Virus record (IMG/VR): IMGVR_UViG_3300046002_005933
Coordinates: 1 to 35,914 of that record
Source: a virus
Reading direction: 5' to 3' (one strand)
Length of the DNA stretch: 35,914 nucleotides
Shown piece by piece: positions 96-29,192 of the stretch; position 1 is the first letter of the stretch; each line of letters opens with the position of its first letter. Below the pieces are notes generated by a model. The model had not been told where the DNA came from and ran no database searches. It saw nothing but the letters and a program-made list of their open reading frames with translations. The position numbers and the translations under genes were made by a program.

Positions 96-1159
96 GCCAG
101 TTGTTCGGTTGCTTGCTTGTCCCAGAATGGCAGCACGTCTTGCGCAAGGCGGCTGGCTGCGATCTCGCAATACCTCTCTTCGCGCTCGATCATCACGCAC
201 TTCCTGCCGAGGTTCTTGGCGGCGTGTCCCGTGGTTCCTGATCCAGCGAATGGGTCGATGATCGTTCCACCGGGACGAACGCTTATCCTCACCATGAACT
301 GAATCAGCGCGAGCGGCTTGGTGGTCGGGTGACCCAATCGCTCGGATGGTCCACTGCATGGGAAGTTCCACAGTTCAGTTTTCGGGTCGCGTGGGTCAAG
401 CTCGAAGTATCTCCGCAACTCCTCGTAGTCCTTCCGCAACTCCTCGTAGTCCTTCCGCAACTCCTCGTAGTCCTTCCGCAACTCCTCGTAGTCCTTCCGC
501 AAGCGTCCATTAGCCGCTGCCTGGAGCTTTTTGTAATGCTCCTCGGTCGGAAGACACCACTGCGACCGTGCTGTATAGTGTCGCCCCGCCATGCTGGCGG
601 TCCCGCAGATTTCGTTCAGCTTGTCACCGTTCCACCCAAGGGCTTGAAACTCTTCCGCCAAATACGCTCGGATTGGCTCGAAAACCATCCCTTTTGCTTT
701 ATCGCACTCTGCCGCGTACCCGCTTTCCCCAAGCGCCATGTTGTCAGAACCGTAGTGTTCAGCCATTAGGATTCTTTCGGACTCATGGGCTGGCGAGCGT
801 AGAATCTTCGGGCTGTGCTTTTGGGCGTGCGGCGCTGGCTTTTTCCAGACTACATGAGCTAACGGATTCAGCTTTTCAGCAATGATTGATTCTATCCGTC
901 CAGCGAGCGACGGCCACGCAAACCACCACAGCGTAGCGTTCGACTTCATAGTTGGAACAATCAGGTTTAGCCACTCCTTGCAATCTTCCAGCATGTGCTT
1001 TCTCTGCTTCCATTCGTTGTCAAATTCTCCTTTGACTTTGCCGTACGGCGGGTCGGTTAAAACGCAGTCGAATCGGCCAAGCATCGGTAGAATATGGCGG
1101 CAGTCCCCGTGGTAGATCGTGATTCCGTCGTGGTCGTAGTATGGTGTCGGTAGTTTCAT
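92..1159 (-). CDS. Site-specific DNA methyltransferase (N4/N6-type, beta-like motif order)
   Basis: 355 aa, predicted to transfer a methyl group from S-adenosylmethionine to the exocyclic amino group of adenine or cytosine. The catalytic motif IV, DPPYG, is at residues 36-40, and the SAM-binding motif I, DPFAGSGTTG, is near the C-terminus at 302-311. This IV-before-I order is that of beta-class enzymes. A motif pair TTKPLALI just before motif I is also typical. No restriction endonuclease gene is adjacent, so it probably acts as an orphan phage methylase that protects phage DNA from host restriction or modifies replication and packaging sites. The predicted target-recognition/linker region (about residues 221-252) carries a run of perfect KDYEELR heptads encoded by a 21-bp tandem repeat. 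It overlaps both neighbours by 4 nt. The specificity cannot be read from the sequence. Confidence 0.93.
   Translation of the reverse strand: MKLPTPYYDHDGITIYHGDCRHILPMLGRFDCVLTDPPYGKVKGEFDNEWKQRKHMLEDCKEWLNLIVPTMKSNATLWWFAWPSLAGRIESIIAEKLNPLAHVVWKKPAPHAQKHSPKILRSPAHESERILMAEHYGSDNMALGESGYAAECDKAKGMVFEPIRAYLAEEFQALGWNGDKLNEICGTASMAGRHYTARSQWCLPTEEHYKKLQAAANGRLRKDYEELRKDYEELRKDYEELRKDYEELRRYFELDPRDPKTELWNFPCSGPSERLGHPTTKPLALIQFMVRISVRPGGTIIDPFAGSGTTGHAAKNLGRKCVMIEREERYCEIAASRLAQDVLPFWDKQATEQLA
414..497. repeat. Perfect 21-bp tandem repeat (4 copies) inside the methyltransferase gene
   Basis: Four exact copies of a 21-bp unit (plus-strand 414-434, 435-455, 456-476, 477-497), followed by a 5-bp partial copy. 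On the coding (minus) strand each unit encodes the heptad KDYEELR, giving a charged, probably coiled-coil or single-helix segment. Exact identity at the DNA level, including third positions, indicates recent expansion by slippage or unequal recombination. The unit is a multiple of three, so copy-number change lengthens or shortens the protein without shifting the frame. Confidence 0.97.
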
Positions 1160-11462: not shown

Positions 11463-12338
11463 TTACTTCGAGATTTTGGCCTTTTGAGTAACGATGATTC
11501 CCGGCAGTCCCGGTTTCATCCCGTGTGCTTGCTGGCCTTTCAGCACAGCAAGAATGTCGGCGCGGCGGGCGGTGAGGGTGACAAGGCTGGAGTCGGCTTG
11601 ATAGAGTTCGTCTAGGTTGGTCACCTCGAAGTCGATCTCGAATTTCACCCCCTCGACCGGAGCGGATGCCTTGGCGGTCAGGGCGGTTTCCAGTGCGATC
11701 TTGCTCGCCTCCTCGGCTGCACGTTGGCGCTCGGCTTCTGCAATGGCAATGTCCTGCTGGCGCTTTTCCATCAGCATGGCTTCGTGTTCGGCGAATGCTT
11801 TCAGCTTATCGGCTTCGGCTTCCTCCTCTTCGCTGGCGGCGTTGAATTGCGCTTCCTCGGCGGCGATGCGGGCGGCTTCGGCGGCGGCGGCTTGTGCGGC
11901 CTTTTCCTCCTCCTCACGCTTGCGCTTGGCTTCTGCGATCAACTCCAGGCGCAGGCGTTCCCGCTCGGCGTCTTGGCGCTCTTTCTCCGCTTTCCTGCGC
12001 TCGGCTTCAATCCTCTCGGCATAGATACCGACGAGGTGAGTGATGCGGCTTTCCTCATCTGATAGCGTGCCTGAGTAGTCCTTCGCTGCCGCGTCGATCT
12101 TCTTTCCAAGATCAAGCACCGGCTCTTTGACTTCCTTCCGGCGCTTCTCAACAGCGATGCGGACCTCTGCCAGCCGACCGATGAAGGCGCGGGCTTGGTT
12201 GGATTCGGCGGGGCTGCTGACTGTCGTAAATGCCTTCGTCTCTGCAAGCAGGTCTTGCTTGAGTTGGATGGCAGATTGGCTGACTTCGATACCATAACCG
12301 TCGCCGGTCAGGACCATTATTTCGTTTGTTGTACTCAT
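11463..12338 (-). CDS. Coiled-coil early protein (DUF1351-like), 291 aa
   Basis: I place the start at the ATG on the complement of 12336-12338 (MSTTNEIMVLTGDGYG). The frame is open further upstream, but that section shadows another gene, and the leader CCAATCCAAATCCAC fits here. Residues about 40-100 form a helical domain (VEKRRKEVKEPVLDLGKKID). Residues about 100-225 are a long Ala/Glu/Arg-rich coiled coil. The C-terminal 65 residues are a small globular domain with KFEIDFEVTNLDELY. Similar phage proteins lie beside recT and exonuclease genes and are suspected of assisting recombination. Confidence 0.82.
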   Translation of the reverse strand: MSTTNEIMVLTGDGYGIEVSQSAIQLKQDLLAETKAFTTVSSPAESNQARAFIGRLAEVRIAVEKRRKEVKEPVLDLGKKIDAAAKDYSGTLSDEESRITHLVGIYAERIEAERRKAEKERQDAERERLRLELIAEAKRKREEEEKAAQAAAAEAARIAAEEAQFNAASEEEEAEADKLKAFAEHEAMLMEKRQQDIAIAEAERQRAAEEASKIALETALTAKASAPVEGVKFEIDFEVTNLDELYQADSSLVTLTARRADILAVLKGQQAHGMKPGLPGIIVTQKAKISK

Positions 12339-12358
12339 GTGGATTTGGATTGGAGATT

Positions 12359-12589
12359 TCAGTTTTCCCAGAATGCCTGAGATGGGGTCTTTTCCCAAAG
12401 CTGGAGCAGCCCGTTTGCCACTCGAACAACTCGGAAAGCCACCCCGAATTTCATGTTTGCGGCCATCAGGTCGGCCAGTTCTTGCCCTGCTGGTAGGCAC
12501 GCTGAGCGAGGTTCCCAACCGATCAGGGCAGGGCTGTCATGGTTCAGGATTTCGTGCTTGGTGATACACCAACCGGCAGACTCGCTCAT
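12359..12589 (-). CDS. Hypothetical protein, 76 aa
   Basis: Begins MSESAGWCITKHEILNHDSP. The ATG overlaps the stop of the upstream HTH gene by 4 nt (ATGA). The peptide shows a mixed hydrophobic pattern ending in FRVVRVANGLLQLWEKTPSQ, suggesting a small beta-sheet domain. No recognisable motif. The overlap and the leader-sized gap before the coiled-coil gene support it being a real gene. Confidence 0.68.
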   Translation of the reverse strand: MSESAGWCITKHEILNHDSPALIGWEPRSACLPAGQELADLMAANMKFGVAFRVVRVANGLLQLWEKTPSQAFWEN

Positions 12590-13302: not shown

Positions 13303-13710
13303 TCAGATTGCTTCGATGTGGTGGAATGGTCCGTTAAGTGACCAGCAAGCCAGCCAACCCATGTTCTCGCTGAGCCATCTGATTTCTCGGGTTGGGAATT
13401 GGATGGATTCTGATGTTTCGAGGTCTTCTTCTGGGAAGGTTCCAAGGTATGCCCAGCGGAGTTTGCCTTCTGGGAGCGGTGGAAGATCGGGAAGGTCGGT
13501 AGGCATTGGAAGCTCTGGCGCGGCGGTCAGCGGCTCGGGCGGATTCATTGGCAAGTCAGCACCGCCAGCGACTTCGGATGATTCGTCACCTTCACCGGCA
13601 ATGAACTTCGCGAGTGCTTCGCTTCTCTTGGTCTTCCGTGCCGCCAGCGTGGCAAGGAGTTCCAGCAGGGCCGGCGCGTGGTCTTCGTGGATTTCGAGGG
13701 TTAGTTTCAT
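13303..13710 (-). CDS. Hypothetical acidic Pro-rich protein, 135 aa
   Basis: The start is the ATG on the complement of 13708-13710 (MKLTLEIHEDHAPALLEL). Residues 1-40 form an alpha/beta N-terminus resembling a short oligomerisation or RHH-like element (TLAARKTKRSEALAKFIAGE). Residues 45-85 are acidic and proline-rich. The C-terminal 50 residues (KLRWAYLGTFPEEDL, then WLACWSLNGPFHHIE) look folded. It is the third gene preceded by the 5-nt repeat leader. The family is not recognised. Confidence 0.75.
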   Translation of the reverse strand: MKLTLEIHEDHAPALLELLATLAARKTKRSEALAKFIAGEGDESSEVAGGADLPMNPPEPLTAAPELPMPTDLPDLPPLPEGKLRWAYLGTFPEEDLETSESIQFPTREIRWLSENMGWLACWSLNGPFHHIEAI

Positions 13711-13712
13711 GG

Positions 13713-13777
13713 GTGGTGCGTTGGGTTGTATTGTGTTGTGACGTGCTGCGGAGTAACGCAATGTGGCGCGAGGCGTG
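13713..13777 (-). repeat. Pentanucleotide NNCRC leader, block C (13 units)
   Basis: Read in steps of five from 13713, the plus strand gives 13 consecutive units of the form GYGNN (NNCRC on the transcribed minus strand), with GYG exact in 9 of 13. The block ends two bases from the ATG of the 135-aa gene. Upstream in the transcript it abuts a spacer-like sequence (GAAAATC... on the plus strand, 13778 onward) that overlaps the stop codon of the previous gene. It is the same design as the two longer leaders at 14371-14682 and 15203-15341. A period of 5 excludes coding constraint. Confidence 0.85.
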
Positions 13778-13782
13778 GAAAA

Positions 13783-14358
13783 TCAGCAATCCTCCCAAGT
13801 CAGATCATCGCCGACCGAGAACCGACCGTAGAATCCGCCATTGCGAGGGCGGAAACGACCGACGCCGATAAACTTGCCAGCCTCGATAAGGTATCGAGTG
13901 AAAACTTCCTTGGTGATAGTTTCGTCCAAGATATAGAAAGTCGCCTTGGCTTCCCATTCATGGATCACCGGGAACTTGCGGGGAACGCGGGTACCGCTGC
14001 CGCGCTTGCCGTCTGCGTGGCATGAAAAGGTTTCGCCTTCGGTTTGGTCCTTGGTGACTCCAAGCATAAGCGGGTCAGTCACAAGGATTCCCGCTGTGAA
14101 ATGCTTCGTCCAAGTGGCGTTGCCCTTGCCTGGGATTTTCTCGCCAAGGTACTGTGCGCATTCCATCAGCGCGTTCTTGAGTGCCATCGGCGGGATATAC
14201 ACTTCGCCGGTCTTGCGGTCGTAGTGCTGATGCTCCCGCCAGTTGCGGGCGTCGTAGTCGGCGCTCGATTCCTTTTCGAGTTTAGGAACGTCGGATGAGT
14301 ATTGCTTGCTTTGCGAGTATGGCGAAGCGCTTGATAATGTAACTACTGCTTTTTTCAT
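13783..14358 (-). CDS. Hypothetical early protein with glycine-rich loop, 191 aa
   Basis: Begins MKKAVVTLSSASPYSQSKQY. The C-terminal half contains IGVGRFRPRNGGFYGRF (about residues 163-179), a glycine/arginine-rich loop that by eye resembles the G-rich loop of RAMP/ferredoxin-like RNA-binding proteins. The middle region has YIPPMALKNALMECAQYLG, a segment common to several phage proteins of unknown function. I do not claim nuclease activity because no catalytic His or Lys set is evident. The gene is preceded by the longest NNCRC repeat leader (14371-14682). Confidence 0.78.
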   Translation of the reverse strand: MKKAVVTLSSASPYSQSKQYSSDVPKLEKESSADYDARNWREHQHYDRKTGEVYIPPMALKNALMECAQYLGEKIPGKGNATWTKHFTAGILVTDPLMLGVTKDQTEGETFSCHADGKRGSGTRVPRKFPVIHEWEAKATFYILDETITKEVFTRYLIEAGKFIGVGRFRPRNGGFYGRFSVGDDLTWEDC

Positions 14359-14370
14359 ATTGTGGATTTG

Positions 14371-14682
14371 GTGGTGTGAAGTGGTGTGAAGTGGTGTAAC
14401 GCTGTGCGGCGTACGGTGTTGCGATGTGTAGCGTGGTGATGCGTGTTGTTGCGTCGGAAAATGGTTGTTGAGTCGTGCTGTGATGTGGGGAGCCGTGGAG
14501 TGTCGTGCCGTGCTGCGGAATGCAGTGGAGCGTTGCGAGGGAGAATGGTCGTTGAGTCGTGGCGTGGCGTGGAGCGATGCGGAGTGCAGTTGAGTGCTGT
14601 GCAGGAGAATGATTGGTGCGTTGTGTTGATTCGTGCCGTGTAGTGGCGCGGTGCGCTGTGGAGCGTTGTGGAGCGTTGTGGT
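14371..14682 (-). repeat. Pentanucleotide NNCRC leader, four blocks with 14-nt spacers
   Basis: The 327-bp gap before the 191-aa gene is almost entirely degenerate 5-nt repeat. In plus-strand GYGNN phase the blocks are 14371-14455 (17 units, 13 exact GYG), 14470-14539 (14 units, 11 exact), 14554-14603 (10 units, 8 exact) and 14618-14682 (13 units, 12 exact). The three separators (14456-14469, 14540-14553, 14604-14617) are each exactly 14 nt and share a GGARAATG core. Local perfect 10-bp duplications (GTGGTGTGAA at 14371 and 14381; TGTGGAGCGT at 14657 and 14667) show expansion in multiples of five. On the transcript the region is C/A-rich and should be largely unstructured. Confidence 0.93.
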
Positions 14683-14685
14683 GAA

Positions 14686-15189
14686 CTATTTGCTGAAAAG
14701 TGAGGCGATATTGCCGATCTTGAGGGTTGCCGAATCCGATGTCCTAGCGGCTTGTTCGGCCAATCCTAACACCCGACGCTCTCCGCTCTTCGACATGATC
14801 CCAAGGATCGTCCCGGTGACAGTGTGCTGGATTTTCAGGTCGGGCGGCAACTTGGCGTAGTCGGCGCAAGCAAGGACTCGCAGCCCTTTCTTGGCGACCT
14901 TCTGCGACCGCTTCACCGCCCCGCTGGCAACCTCTGGGATTTCATCGTTGGACAGGCGGCGAATACCAACACCCATCACAGCGTCAAAGGCGATGCCATC
15001 TTTCAGCAGGCGGCGGCGGGCCGTGTCAAGCTGGCTGCGATGCTCCTGAACGTCGATCTTGGCGACGGTGTTCAATTCGGAGTAGGTGACCACCTGGCCG
15101 ACCTCTACGGATTGAAGATGCTTGGTCAGCAACTCCGCTTCTGCGGACGCTCTGCCGATGGTGTGGGCTGGATTGAGTTCGGTTTGCAT
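14686..15189 (-). CDS. Hypothetical early phage protein, 167 aa
   Basis: Begins MQTELNPAHTIGRASAEAEL. Residues about 20-75 resemble a winged-helix-like module (VGQVVTYSELNTVAKIDV, then TARRRLLKDGIAFDAVMGVG). This is followed by RRLSNDEIPE and a basic helix (KRSQKVAKKGLRVLACADY). The overall pattern recalls a common phage early protein of unknown function with the order helix, YxEL, RRLLK, GIRRL. DNA binding is plausible. The gene is preceded by the NNCRC leader at 15203-15341 and followed by the longer one. Confidence 0.78.
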   Translation of the reverse strand: MQTELNPAHTIGRASAEAELLTKHLQSVEVGQVVTYSELNTVAKIDVQEHRSQLDTARRRLLKDGIAFDAVMGVGIRRLSNDEIPEVASGAVKRSQKVAKKGLRVLACADYAKLPPDLKIQHTVTGTILGIMSKSGERRVLGLAEQAARTSDSATLKIGNIASLFSK

Positions 15190-15202
15190 GGTGTGGATTG
15201 TT

Positions 15203-15341
15203 GCGTCGAGTTGCGAGGTGCGGCGGGGTGTTGTGACGTGCCAAGTCGCGCTGCGAAGAAAAGGGGATGGCGTGTTGAGTTGTGAGGTGCAGCAAAGCGA
15301 AGCGTGGTGCAGTGTAGTATCGTGCGGTGCCGTGGAGCGTC
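15203..15341 (-). repeat. Pentanucleotide NNCRC leader, two blocks with a 14-nt spacer
   Basis: In plus-strand GYGNN phase, 15203-15257 holds 11 units (9 exact GYG) and 15272-15341 holds 14 units (11 exact). They are separated by exactly 14 nt (15258-15271, GAAAAGGGGATGGC). The upstream edge continues as GGAAAGTG at 15342, again like the spacer, and runs into the stop codon of the RHH-like gene. The downstream edge lies 13 bp before the ATG of the 167-aa gene, with the start context CAATCCACACC. The sequence differs from the other leaders except for this periodic pattern, so the period and the CRC triplet appear to be what is conserved. Confidence 0.92.
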
Positions 15342-15350
15342 GGAAAGTGA

Positions 15351-15557
15351 TTAGGATGGTTGGGTGGTGTTGGAGGTTGTCGCAAGAATTTCTTCAGCGA
15401 CCCGTCCGAGGTGGTGGCGGGCAAAACTGCTTTCGCTCCGGTTCTCCACCACGGAAGCCGCTTTGATGCGGTCGCGGAGTGCTTTCGATACTTTGAAACC
15501 GAGGGTGCTGAACTCCTCCTGTTTCCCGTTGGATTTTTTCGGTTGGCGCTTAGGCAT
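15351..15557 (-). CDS. Small ribbon-helix-helix-like regulator, 68 aa
   Basis: Begins MPKRQPKKSNGKQEEF with a basic tail. It then has LGFKVSKALRDRIKAASVVENRSESSFARHHLGRVAEEIL, a beta-strand plus two helices typical of Arc/MetJ or CopG-type DNA-binding proteins (FKVSKALRDRIKA strand-helix, then an N-capped second helix starting at SESSFARHH). It is the first gene of the leftward operon, next to an AT-rich region containing a palindrome, so autoregulation of the early promoter is plausible. It could also be the protein that reads the repeat leaders downstream, but that is speculative. Confidence 0.78.
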   Translation of the reverse strand: MPKRQPKKSNGKQEEFSTLGFKVSKALRDRIKAASVVENRSESSFARHHLGRVAEEILATTSNTTQPS

Positions 15558-27823: not shown

Positions 27824-28206
27824 TCGGCGGGGTCTTGTGCGGGTTCTGGTTGCGGTTCTGGTGTTGGTAAATCTACAACCGCCCCGTTCACGATGGCGCG
27901 GTTTTGGGCGGCGAGTTTCGCATCCACGCTGCGCAAGTCGCACGGTTCGGTTACTGGTTGCCCGAGCTGCCGTTGGATAGGCGCAATCGCGGCGTGTAGC
28001 GCGGTTCCGACTGCGTAGTGGTCGCTGAATTGCGCGGTGCGATTTTTGGCTTGCAGCCATGCGGTCAGTTCACCGGTCGGCATCGCGAGCGTTCTTGCGG
28101 CCATCGCATTTAGCCCGTCGCACGCGGCTAGGATGAATCCAAGAATCCGCTGCGCGTCGGCAGCGTTGTCTGCGTCGAGTTTTTCGGTGGTGGTTAGTAG
28201 ACTCAT
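27820..28206 (-). CDS. Hypothetical protein upstream of the lysis cassette, 128 aa
   Basis: The start is the ATG on the complement of 28204-28206 (MSLLTTTEKLDADNAADAQR). Mostly helical and Ala/Leu-rich, with an acidic Pro-rich C-terminus (TPEPQPEPAQDPAE). The family is not recognised. Its start and stop overlap neighbours by 4 nt. It sits between a fibre gene and lysis genes, so it may be a fibre-assembly or lysis accessory factor. No motif supports either. Confidence 0.72.
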   Translation of the reverse strand: MSLLTTTEKLDADNAADAQRILGFILAACDGLNAMAARTLAMPTGELTAWLQAKNRTAQFSDHYAVGTALHAAIAPIQRQLGQPVTEPCDLRSVDAKLAAQNRAIVNGAVVDLPTPEPQPEPAQDPAE

Positions 28207-29192
28207 GGTGAGAGTTTGGTGATAGACGCGGAGATTTTTCCAGACGCGATTTCGATTGTGACGCCGCTGGTTGCTGTCCACTGCGCGGCTACGATCTTCG
28301 CCGTTCCTCCAGTCGCGCCTGTTCGGAAAATCGCGTAGCCTCCGATTGGTCTTGGCCCGGTTGCAAGCGTGATTCTGGCGTATAAAGCAAGGTCCAAGGC
28401 GGCGATCCAGTAAGCCGATTGCGGCGTTGTATCGGCGGCAAATACTATCCCTGATCCGTTTGTTGATGTCGAGTTAAAGTCGCTGCTCGGAACTCTCAAA
28501 TACATCCTTAGCCCGCCTGATCCGCTGGAGTTAACGATGGCGGTCCATTCTATTTTGTAATCAGTATTTGCTTCGAGAGTGAAACTCATGCCGGTAACAT
28601 CAGTGACAGCGTTTGAGTTCGTCACTGACCAAGTTCCAGTTGATTTCTTTCGTTCGGTTCCAAGATAGTTTCTAACCGCTTCAGGAGTCCCAAGTGGCAC
28701 AATCGCCAAACCAGCGGCACCGAATCCTAGCGCGGTCAAGTGCGCGGTTTGCGCGGTAGCGTCGGCATAGCTCCAAGTCGTTCCGCTGGCGATGGTCGTT
28801 ACGCCGGAGATTGTTCCGGTGGCGAGCGATGCGGTTGATTCAGCGGTTCCGGCGTAAAGCGCGTTTGTGGCGGTTGCGACTGTTGCCGTTGCCAAGTCTC
28901 CAGGCTGCACGGCTGATGCTGCCAGCGCCCCTTGTGCTGCTGTTGCTGCTCCTACGTCCGCTGCGCTTGGCATTGCGTGAACGTGATCGCTGCGACTCGC
29001 TGTCGTCGCCACGCCTGCCGCTGCCGTGCCGAGTGCTGCCGGCGTCGCGTCTGACAGGTCAGCGCCACCGCCACTTTCCGCCACGCGGTAACGAGCCCAG
29101 CGGGTCTTCGTGGCGTTGTAAATCCACTGGATGCCGTTGGGGTCGGTCCACGGGTTGAACTGGTATTGATTCGGATTGTTTGGCCAGGTCAT
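28203..29192 (-). CDS. Tail fibre protein, 329 aa
   Basis: Begins MTWPNNPNQYQFNPWTDPNG. An early segment (WIYNATKTRWARYRV) is followed by DLSDATPAALGTAAAGVATT and SRSDHVHAMPSAADVG, a repeat-like pattern common in tail fibre shafts. The C-terminal half is beta-rich with a YKIEWTAIVNSSGSGGLRMYL region similar to fibre tips. It is likely a receptor-binding fibre. Overlaps neighbours by 4 nt. Confidence 0.8.
   Translation of the reverse strand: MTWPNNPNQYQFNPWTDPNGIQWIYNATKTRWARYRVAESGGGADLSDATPAALGTAAAGVATTASRSDHVHAMPSAADVGAATAAQGALAASAVQPGDLATATVATATNALYAGTAESTASLATGTISGVTTIASGTTWSYADATAQTAHLTALGFGAAGLAIVPLGTPEAVRNYLGTERKKSTGTWSVTNSNAVTDVTGMSFTLEANTDYKIEWTAIVNSSGSGGLRMYLRVPSSDFNSTSTNGSGIVFAADTTPQSAYWIAALDLALYARITLATGPRPIGGYAIFRTGATGGTAKIVAAQWTATSGVTIEIASGKISASITKLSP

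What the first reader, a model, noticed from the sequence alone, without database searches (positions are those of the whole stretch)
13711..15350. Degenerate pentanucleotide (NNCRC)n leaders before three consecutive early genes, in blocks separated by exact 14-nt spacers
Seen directly: the gaps before the genes starting at 13710, 14358 and 15189 are almost wholly made of 5-nt units matching NNCRC on the transcribed strand (GYGNN on the plus strand). By hand I count seven in-phase blocks (11, 14, 17, 14, 10, 13 and 13 units, 92 in all), with GYG exact in 73 of 92. Blocks inside a leader are separated by four spacers, each exactly 14 nt long; on the transcript strand three have the form ACC/AAC...CATTYTCC (e.g. 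AACAACCATTTTCC), while 15258-15271 reads GCCATCCCCTTTTC. The leaders have different sequences but the same period and triplet, so periodicity seems to be what is selected. A period of 5 rules out coding. A protein ring that reads one triplet every five nucleotides (the geometry of TRAP bound to NAGNN repeats) would fit, as would a DNA-level array or a C/A-rich translational enhancer. I know of no described phage system of this kind, but I could not search.
Basis: partly seen in the sequence, partly recalled or inferred. Interest (0 to 1): 0.88.

Follow-up and report, generated by a model that had tools for sequence, protein, structure and literature searches.

The report
Phage VIPR guide-RNA arrays, CRC type
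The odd five-letter repeats are guide-RNA arrays of VIPR, a recently described CRISPR-like weapon that phages use against rival phages; this copy uses a different fixed triplet from the published one, and a related copy of this type could be decoded to show which rival genes it aims at.

Summary
Seven in-phase (NNCRC)n blocks lie on the minus strand (94 units, 74 exact), with four spacers of exactly 14 nt.

They are not TRAP-like leaders. The gene between the leaders (13783-14358) encodes Vipr, a Cas7/RAMP-fold protein, and its neighbour (14686-15189) encodes a Vap1-like winged-helix protein. Both are homologous to vipr and vap1 of phage SUSP1, the VIPR (Viral Interference Programmable Repeat) system described in a 2026 preprint (PMC13142463). 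The blocks are vrRNA guide arrays: the fixed triplet is scaffold and the variable NN dinucleotides are the guide. Among IMG/VR loci fetched by the DNA pattern alone, 66 of 82 with degenerate arrays also encode Vipr.

The window differs from the published GGY/NN type in its fixed triplet (CAC/CGC) and short 14-nt constant linkers.

I tested the published 1-nt-skip code on a CGC-type relative in Paracoccus. One guide matched 20/20 nt at about 100 places (0 control hits), in a serine recombinase wherever read. Another matched 20/20 in phage terminase. The skipped base fell at codon wobble positions. For the window itself the host is unknown and only one candidate target (block B, SSB-like gene) was found. 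Across the family, Vipr residue 168 (Arg/Gln) tracks CGC/CAC.

The parts
13783..14358 (-). vipr gene, 191 aa, Cas7/RAMP-fold RNA-binding protein (PHROG 4652, unknown function)
   Evidence: Its only PDB sequence hit is SUSP1 Vipr (36pp): E=5e-4 alone, 9.5e-7 with profile A2, 5e-11 with A1. AlphaFold pLDDT 95. Foldseek: type VII CRISPR effector subunits and Csm3-type subunits, E 1e-9, prob 1.0.
14686..15189 (-). vap1-like accessory gene, 167 aa, predicted winged-helix DNA-binding protein
   Evidence: Profile A3 hits SUSP1 28031-28471 as the only hit among 247 ORFs, E=1.6e-8. Homologues in 65 of 82 Vipr loci, next to vipr. AlphaFold pLDDT 89 with wHTH-like order of elements; weak Foldseek hits to wHTH regulators.
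15272..15341 (-). vrRNA block A, 14 units; NN guide GA TC GG CG GA TA TG CA TT TT TG CT (+AA AA)
   Evidence: Sequence. Target scan: chance-level hits only.
15258..15271 (-). 14-nt constant spacer GCCATCCCCTTTTC
   Evidence: comparable spacers in relatives.
15193..15257 (-). vrRNA block B, 13 units; NN guide TT AG GA GG GT AA CC CG CT (+AA GA AA TC)
   Evidence: All nine variable NN match an SSB-like phage gene with 1-nt skip at wobble positions. Candidate target, not proven.
14618..14682 (-). vrRNA block C, 13 units
   Evidence: no target found.
14604..14617 (-). 14-nt constant spacer ACCAATCATTCTCC
14554..14603 (-). vrRNA block D, 10 units
   Evidence: not scanned for targets.
14540..14553 (-). 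14-nt constant spacer AACGACCATTCTCC
14470..14539 (-). vrRNA block E, 14 units
   Evidence: chance-level hits only.
14456..14469 (-). 14-nt constant spacer AACAACCATTTTCC
   Evidence: close relatives have RACAACNNTTTTCC.
14371..14455 (-). vrRNA block F, 17 units, directly upstream of vipr
   Evidence: partial 1-nt-skip match to vipr start regions, 9/17 own, 10/17 in L132 and L134; suggestive only.
13713..13777 (-). vrRNA block G, 13 units, downstream of vipr
   Evidence: not scanned for targets.
15351..15557 (-). 68-aa Arc/RHH-like protein upstream of the arrays; possible regulator, not shown to be part of the system
   Evidence: PHROG 3431 Arc-like repressor, E=0.0057.

Best explanation
The locus is a phage-borne VIPR system: a Vap1-like gene, a vipr gene and seven vrRNA guide blocks placed before, between and after them. 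The blocks are transcribed with the operon (inferred). Vipr subunits polymerise along each block, each holding one CRC triplet (inferred from the homologous published system and from period 5). The NN dinucleotides left exposed then pair with DNA of a rival phage, two bases read and one skipped, with the skipped base usually at a codon wobble position, and repress the gene under them. Shown here: the arrays, the Vipr and Vap1 homology, their genomic co-occurrence, and in a CGC-type relative that decoded guides hit rival-phage genes under the 1-nt-skip rule. Inferred for the window: transcription, processing at the constant TTTTCC-type linkers, RNP formation, and repression.
For: Arrays real and unique in the window. 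Loci fetched by the DNA pattern (NNCRC)8 alone encode Vipr in 66 of 82 degenerate-array cases, against 6 of 38 simple-repeat or other loci. The window Vipr's only PDB sequence hit is SUSP1 Vipr and its fold is Cas7/Csm3. A Vap1 homologue sits beside vipr in 65 of 82 loci and matches SUSP1 Vap1. SUSP1's own GGY arrays are found by the same period-5 detector. Decoded guides of the CGC-type Paracoccus relative: vrRNA1 20/20 nt at about 100 places, 63 of 125 genomes with a match, 0 control hits, serine-recombinase ORFs at every site read; vrRNA4 18/20 in 22 genomes, 213 bp away in the same gene in the three loci checked; vrRNA3 20/20 in two genomes in terminase GpA, E 7e-88; 2-nt-skip control 0 hits. 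Skip base falls on wobble positions. Published mechanism: PMC13142463.
Against: The published triplet is GGY, here CRC. The 14-nt linkers are shorter than the structured SUSP1 tail. No RNA data. The window's host is unknown, and of five guides scanned (A, B, C, E, F) only B gave a candidate target, of moderate significance. Devosia and Roseomonas guides gave nothing that I accept.
Confidence: 0.92

Rival explanations
1. Vipr binds the arrays in its own mRNA leaders and so regulates vap and vipr translation or processing (autoregulation), with guide function secondary or lost.
For: Blocks lie directly before vap, vipr and the next gene. Block F partially matches the vipr start region under the 1-nt skip only (9/17 units, p=1e-4 before multiple testing).
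Against: NN are hypervariable and not shared between blocks. Own-locus targeting is not above shuffles over 213 vrRNAs. The ATVTLT-coding motif matched by block F is common in unrelated genes.
Confidence: 0.12
2. TRAP-like leader control: a ring protein reads CRC triplets to control attenuation or translation of early genes.
For: One triplet per five nucleotides, located in leaders.
Against: No TRAP-like protein found. The co-occurring protein is Cas7/RAMP-like and homologous to SUSP1 Vipr. Guide content decodes to rival-phage genes in a relative.
Confidence: 0.02
3. DNA-level iteron or partition array, or a C/A-rich translational enhancer with no guide role.
For: Repetitive, intergenic, near gene starts.
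Against: Triplet identity changes with the Vipr lineage (GAC, GRC, GTT, CTC/GTC, CGC, CAC); arrays co-occur with Vipr; targets decode in Paracoccus.
Confidence: 0.02

Closest known systems
VIPR, Escherichia phage SUSP1 (vipr + vap1 + GGY/NN vrRNAs), PMC13142463
   Same: Homologous Vipr and Vap1, minimal two-gene phage locus, tandem pentanucleotide arrays in flanking intergenic DNA, hypervariable NN; the 1-nt skip with wobble-aligned prophage targets holds in a CGC-type relative.
   Different: Fixed triplet CRC (CAC 47, CGC 27) instead of GGY; blocks joined by 14-nt constant linkers of TTTTCC type instead of a structured pseudoknot tail; blocks embedded before, between and after the genes; gene order vap-vipr here, vipr-vap in SUSP1.
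Class 1 CRISPR-Cas backbone (Cas7/Csm3, type VII effector subunits)
   Same: RAMP fold of the protein; RNA-guided recognition inferred.
   Different: No CRISPR repeats or spacers; one small RAMP; noncontiguous guide with 5-nt period.
TRAP-trp leader (NAGNN repeats)
   Same: One triplet per about five nucleotides in a leader RNA.
   Different: Different fold, different triplet, and the spacer nucleotides carry information here.

Membership tests
VIPR | Vipr: small single-domain RAMP protein homologous to SUSP1 Vipr | tested here: met
VIPR | vap accessory gene next to vipr | tested here: met
   Vap1 homology E=1.6e-8 among 247 SUSP1 ORFs; 65 of 82 loci
VIPR | vrRNA of about 9-16 pentanucleotide units with fixed triplet and hypervariable NN | tested here: met
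   10-17 units per block
VIPR | Fixed triplet GGY | tested here: not met
   CRC in the window. The preprint allows a 'related consensus' (its fig. S17, not readable here), so this bars the GGY class, not VIPR
VIPR | Constant 3' tail after the repeats | tested here: inconclusive
   Only a 14-nt constant linker (RACAACNNTTTTCC in close relatives), no Rfam hit
VIPR | 1-nt-skip noncontiguous targeting of other mobile elements | tested here: inconclusive
   Met in a CGC-type relative in Paracoccus. For the window's own guides only one candidate target; Devosia and Roseomonas guides gave none accepted
VIPR | vrRNA transcribed and bound by Vipr | not testable with these tools
   Needs sRNA-seq and pull-down
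CRISPR-Cas Class 1 | CRISPR repeat-spacer array and cas operon | tested here: not met
   No such repeats among the window's tandem repeats; only one RAMP gene recognised
TRAP | TRAP fold and NAG triplets | tested here: not met
   Cas7/RAMP fold; CRC triplets

The most novel reading that the evidence does not exclude
The fixed triplet of vrRNAs is itself a readable, evolvable protein-RNA code. Vipr lineages read different triplets (CAC, CGC, GRC, GTY, GGY), and in part of the family G-loop residue 168 sets the middle base (Gln with A, Arg with G), so different VIPRs would be orthogonal. CRC-type VIPRs would then be a separate, widespread branch in environmental phages that targets rival integrases, terminases and replication genes.
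Probability: 0.5. Interest if true: 0.78.

Novelty: new variant of a known kind. Interest (0 to 1): 0.62.

Why it matters
It gives independent, sequence-only support for a very recent claim (VIPR) and extends it to a different triplet class found in phages and genomes of many bacterial groups. It shows that the targeting code can be decoded from genomes: in Paracoccus, two guides of one VIPR locus converge on the same serine recombinase and a third hits a terminase. It also yields a concrete specificity hypothesis (residue 168) that site-directed mutants could test.

Tried and rejected
Target scans of window blocks A, C, E and F in IMG/VR gave only 8-10 unit matches at chance level. All-vs-all target search among fetched loci showed no bulk excess for the 1-nt skip; only L089 to L015 stood out. 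Own-locus targeting is not above shuffles over 213 vrRNAs. Block F as a rival-vipr guide: a dedicated scan found no perfect vipr allele, and the ATVTLT-coding motif is common, so this stays a suggestion. Devosia guides: none, and two 2-mismatch hits at about chance level. Roseomonas guides: four identical 2-mismatch hits not followed up, and none. No Rfam family, so no evidence of hammerhead-interspersed arrays. Phage GenBank collection: no match to the leader region, Vipr or portal. The host could not be assigned. TRAP, iteron and translational-enhancer readings rejected as above.

Full report
OBSERVATION. The minus strand of 13713-15341 holds seven in-phase (NNCRC)n blocks of 14, 13, 13, 10, 14, 17 and 13 units, with 74 of 94 triplets exact and four spacers of exactly 14 nt. 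Lag-5 identity is 0.47-0.53 against 0.30-0.31 in Markov surrogates. The two longer leaders exceed all 2000 surrogates and the short one equals the highest; nothing else in the window reaches the threshold on either strand. The finding is confirmed, with trivial differences in unit count.

SURROUNDINGS. The window is an IMG/VR virus record. Neither the leader region nor the Vipr or portal proteins match any GenBank phage in the collection searched. A scan of IMG/VR for the DNA pattern alone, (CRC NN)x8, returned 120 stretches before stopping at its limit; many carry several degenerate arrays, each phage with its own CAC/CGC bias. Loci fetched by this pattern also encode homologues of the 191-aa product of 13783-14358. 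Counting whole records where I looked, 66 of 82 degenerate-array loci have it, against 6 of 38 simple-repeat or other loci. So array and protein go together.

WHAT THE PROTEIN IS. Its only PDB sequence match is the Vipr protein of phage SUSP1: E=5e-4 alone, 9.5e-7 with a 12-member profile, 5e-11 with the 53-member profile (that profile includes one distant paralogue closer to SUSP1, and without the paralogue SUSP1 Vipr is still the only hit among 247 SUSP1 ORFs, 37.6 bits). The AlphaFold model is confident (pLDDT 95) and matches type VII CRISPR effector and Csm3-type subunits. The gene upstream, 14686-15189, has homologues beside vipr in 65 of 82 loci. Its profile finds SUSP1 28031-28471, the gene next to SUSP1 vipr, as the only hit (E=1.6e-8), and its model has winged-helix-like elements.

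KNOWN SYSTEM. The preprint PMC13142463 describes VIPR: Vipr forms a complex with vrRNAs made of 9-16 YNNGG repeats; the NN dinucleotides pair with double-stranded DNA with one skipped base between pairs, usually the codon wobble; targets are competing phages and satellites; seven types exist, with GGY 'or a related consensus'. My period-5 detector finds the SUSP1 GGY arrays too. The window has the same two genes and the same array logic, with CRC as the fixed triplet and 14-nt constant linkers (RACAACNNTTTTCC in close relatives). Genome-borne relatives carry other triplets: GAC in Geobacteraceae, GRC in Accumulibacter, GTT in Porticoccaceae, CTC/GTC in Iningainema, CGC in Paracoccus and others.

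DOES THE CODE HOLD FOR CRC-TYPE ARRAYS? I decoded three guides of the CGC-type VIPR in Paracoccus litorisediminis (L157) and searched 125 Paracoccus genomes with 10 NN units (20 nt). vrRNA1 matched exactly at about 100 places (63 genomes with a match of up to 2 mismatches; 0 control hits). At every site I read it lies in the coding frame of a large serine recombinase (DVVVVYKIDRLSR), with the skip base at wobble. vrRNA4 matched at 18/20 in 22 genomes, exactly 213 bp away in the same gene in the three loci checked. vrRNA3 matched exactly in two genomes, against about 0.001 expected (my estimate from 4.9e8 bases, two strands, 4^20), in the terminase large subunit GpA, again at wobble. The same guide with a 2-nt skip gave no hit. 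Guides of Devosia and Roseomonas relatives gave no hit that I accept. So the 1-nt-skip rule and anti-prophage targeting hold in one CRC-type system.

TARGETS OF THE WINDOW. The host is unknown, which limits this. Of five guides scanned (A, B, C, E, F), block B matches with all nine variable NN units in about a dozen phage contigs, and with eight of nine in one more (L246), in one gene family (SSB-like, PHROG 378 E=0.0014; motif SRGFTPSLNEKA), antisense, with the skip at wobble. The targeted phages lack Vipr, and 13 of their fetched stretches share one gene (11463-12485) with the window. I estimate about 0.3 chance families per nine-unit pattern, so this is a candidate only. Block F partly matches vipr start regions (p=1e-4 at 1-nt skip only, before correction for about 65 guides). 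A dedicated scan did not resolve it.

A SPECIFICITY SIGNAL. Across 50 Vipr proteins, G-loop residue 168 is Gln in ten, all CAC-type (CAC fraction 0.85-1.0), and Arg in forty. Arg/Gln changes about seven times on the best tree, at least three on supported branches, and array type follows in nearly every pairing and never goes the other way. The supported pairs are too few for the sign test to reach 0.05. The window's clade is an exception (Arg168 with mixed or CAC arrays), so other residues matter too.

VERDICT. A VIPR locus of a CRC/NN class: a variant of a kind described only months ago. Whether the preprint's supplement already lists this class could not be checked. Shown: arrays, homology, co-occurrence, and the code in one relative. 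Inferred for this phage: transcription, linker processing, RNP formation, and repression of a rival.

Noticed in passing
Vipr alignment, residue 168 (window 13783-14358 -): Arg/Gln at the G-loop position covaries with CGC/CAC array type across the family; SUSP1 Vipr has Asp there and uses GGY.
   Followed up: partly
L157 (Paracoccus litorisediminis): Two guides of one VIPR locus converge on the same large serine recombinase 213 bp apart; the genome's own copy has one mismatch to vrRNA1 (G051:C45:183394), which may reflect self-avoidance.
   Followed up: partly
L089 to L015: CGC-type vrRNAs of one viral contig match a VIPR-bearing viral contig with 10 and 8 consecutive NN at 1-nt skip; the second site is aligned to codon wobble.
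   Followed up: partly
L108 (G031:C1:1514-1879): A Vipr-like domain lies inside a 495-aa open frame beside CGC arrays; possibly a fused or larger Vipr.
   Followed up: no
L059:5095-5694 +: A second, distant Vipr paralogue (GDYRP motif, closer to SUSP1) about 5 kb from a CRC-type vipr in the same phage.
   Followed up: no
window 412-502: Perfect 21-nt tandem repeat, 4.3 copies, inside the 92-1159 methyltransferase-like ORF (RKDYEEL repeats).
   Followed up: no
L159: Vipr homologue in a contig binned as a Euryarchaeota MAG, with no period-5 array detected in the stretch held.
   Followed up: no
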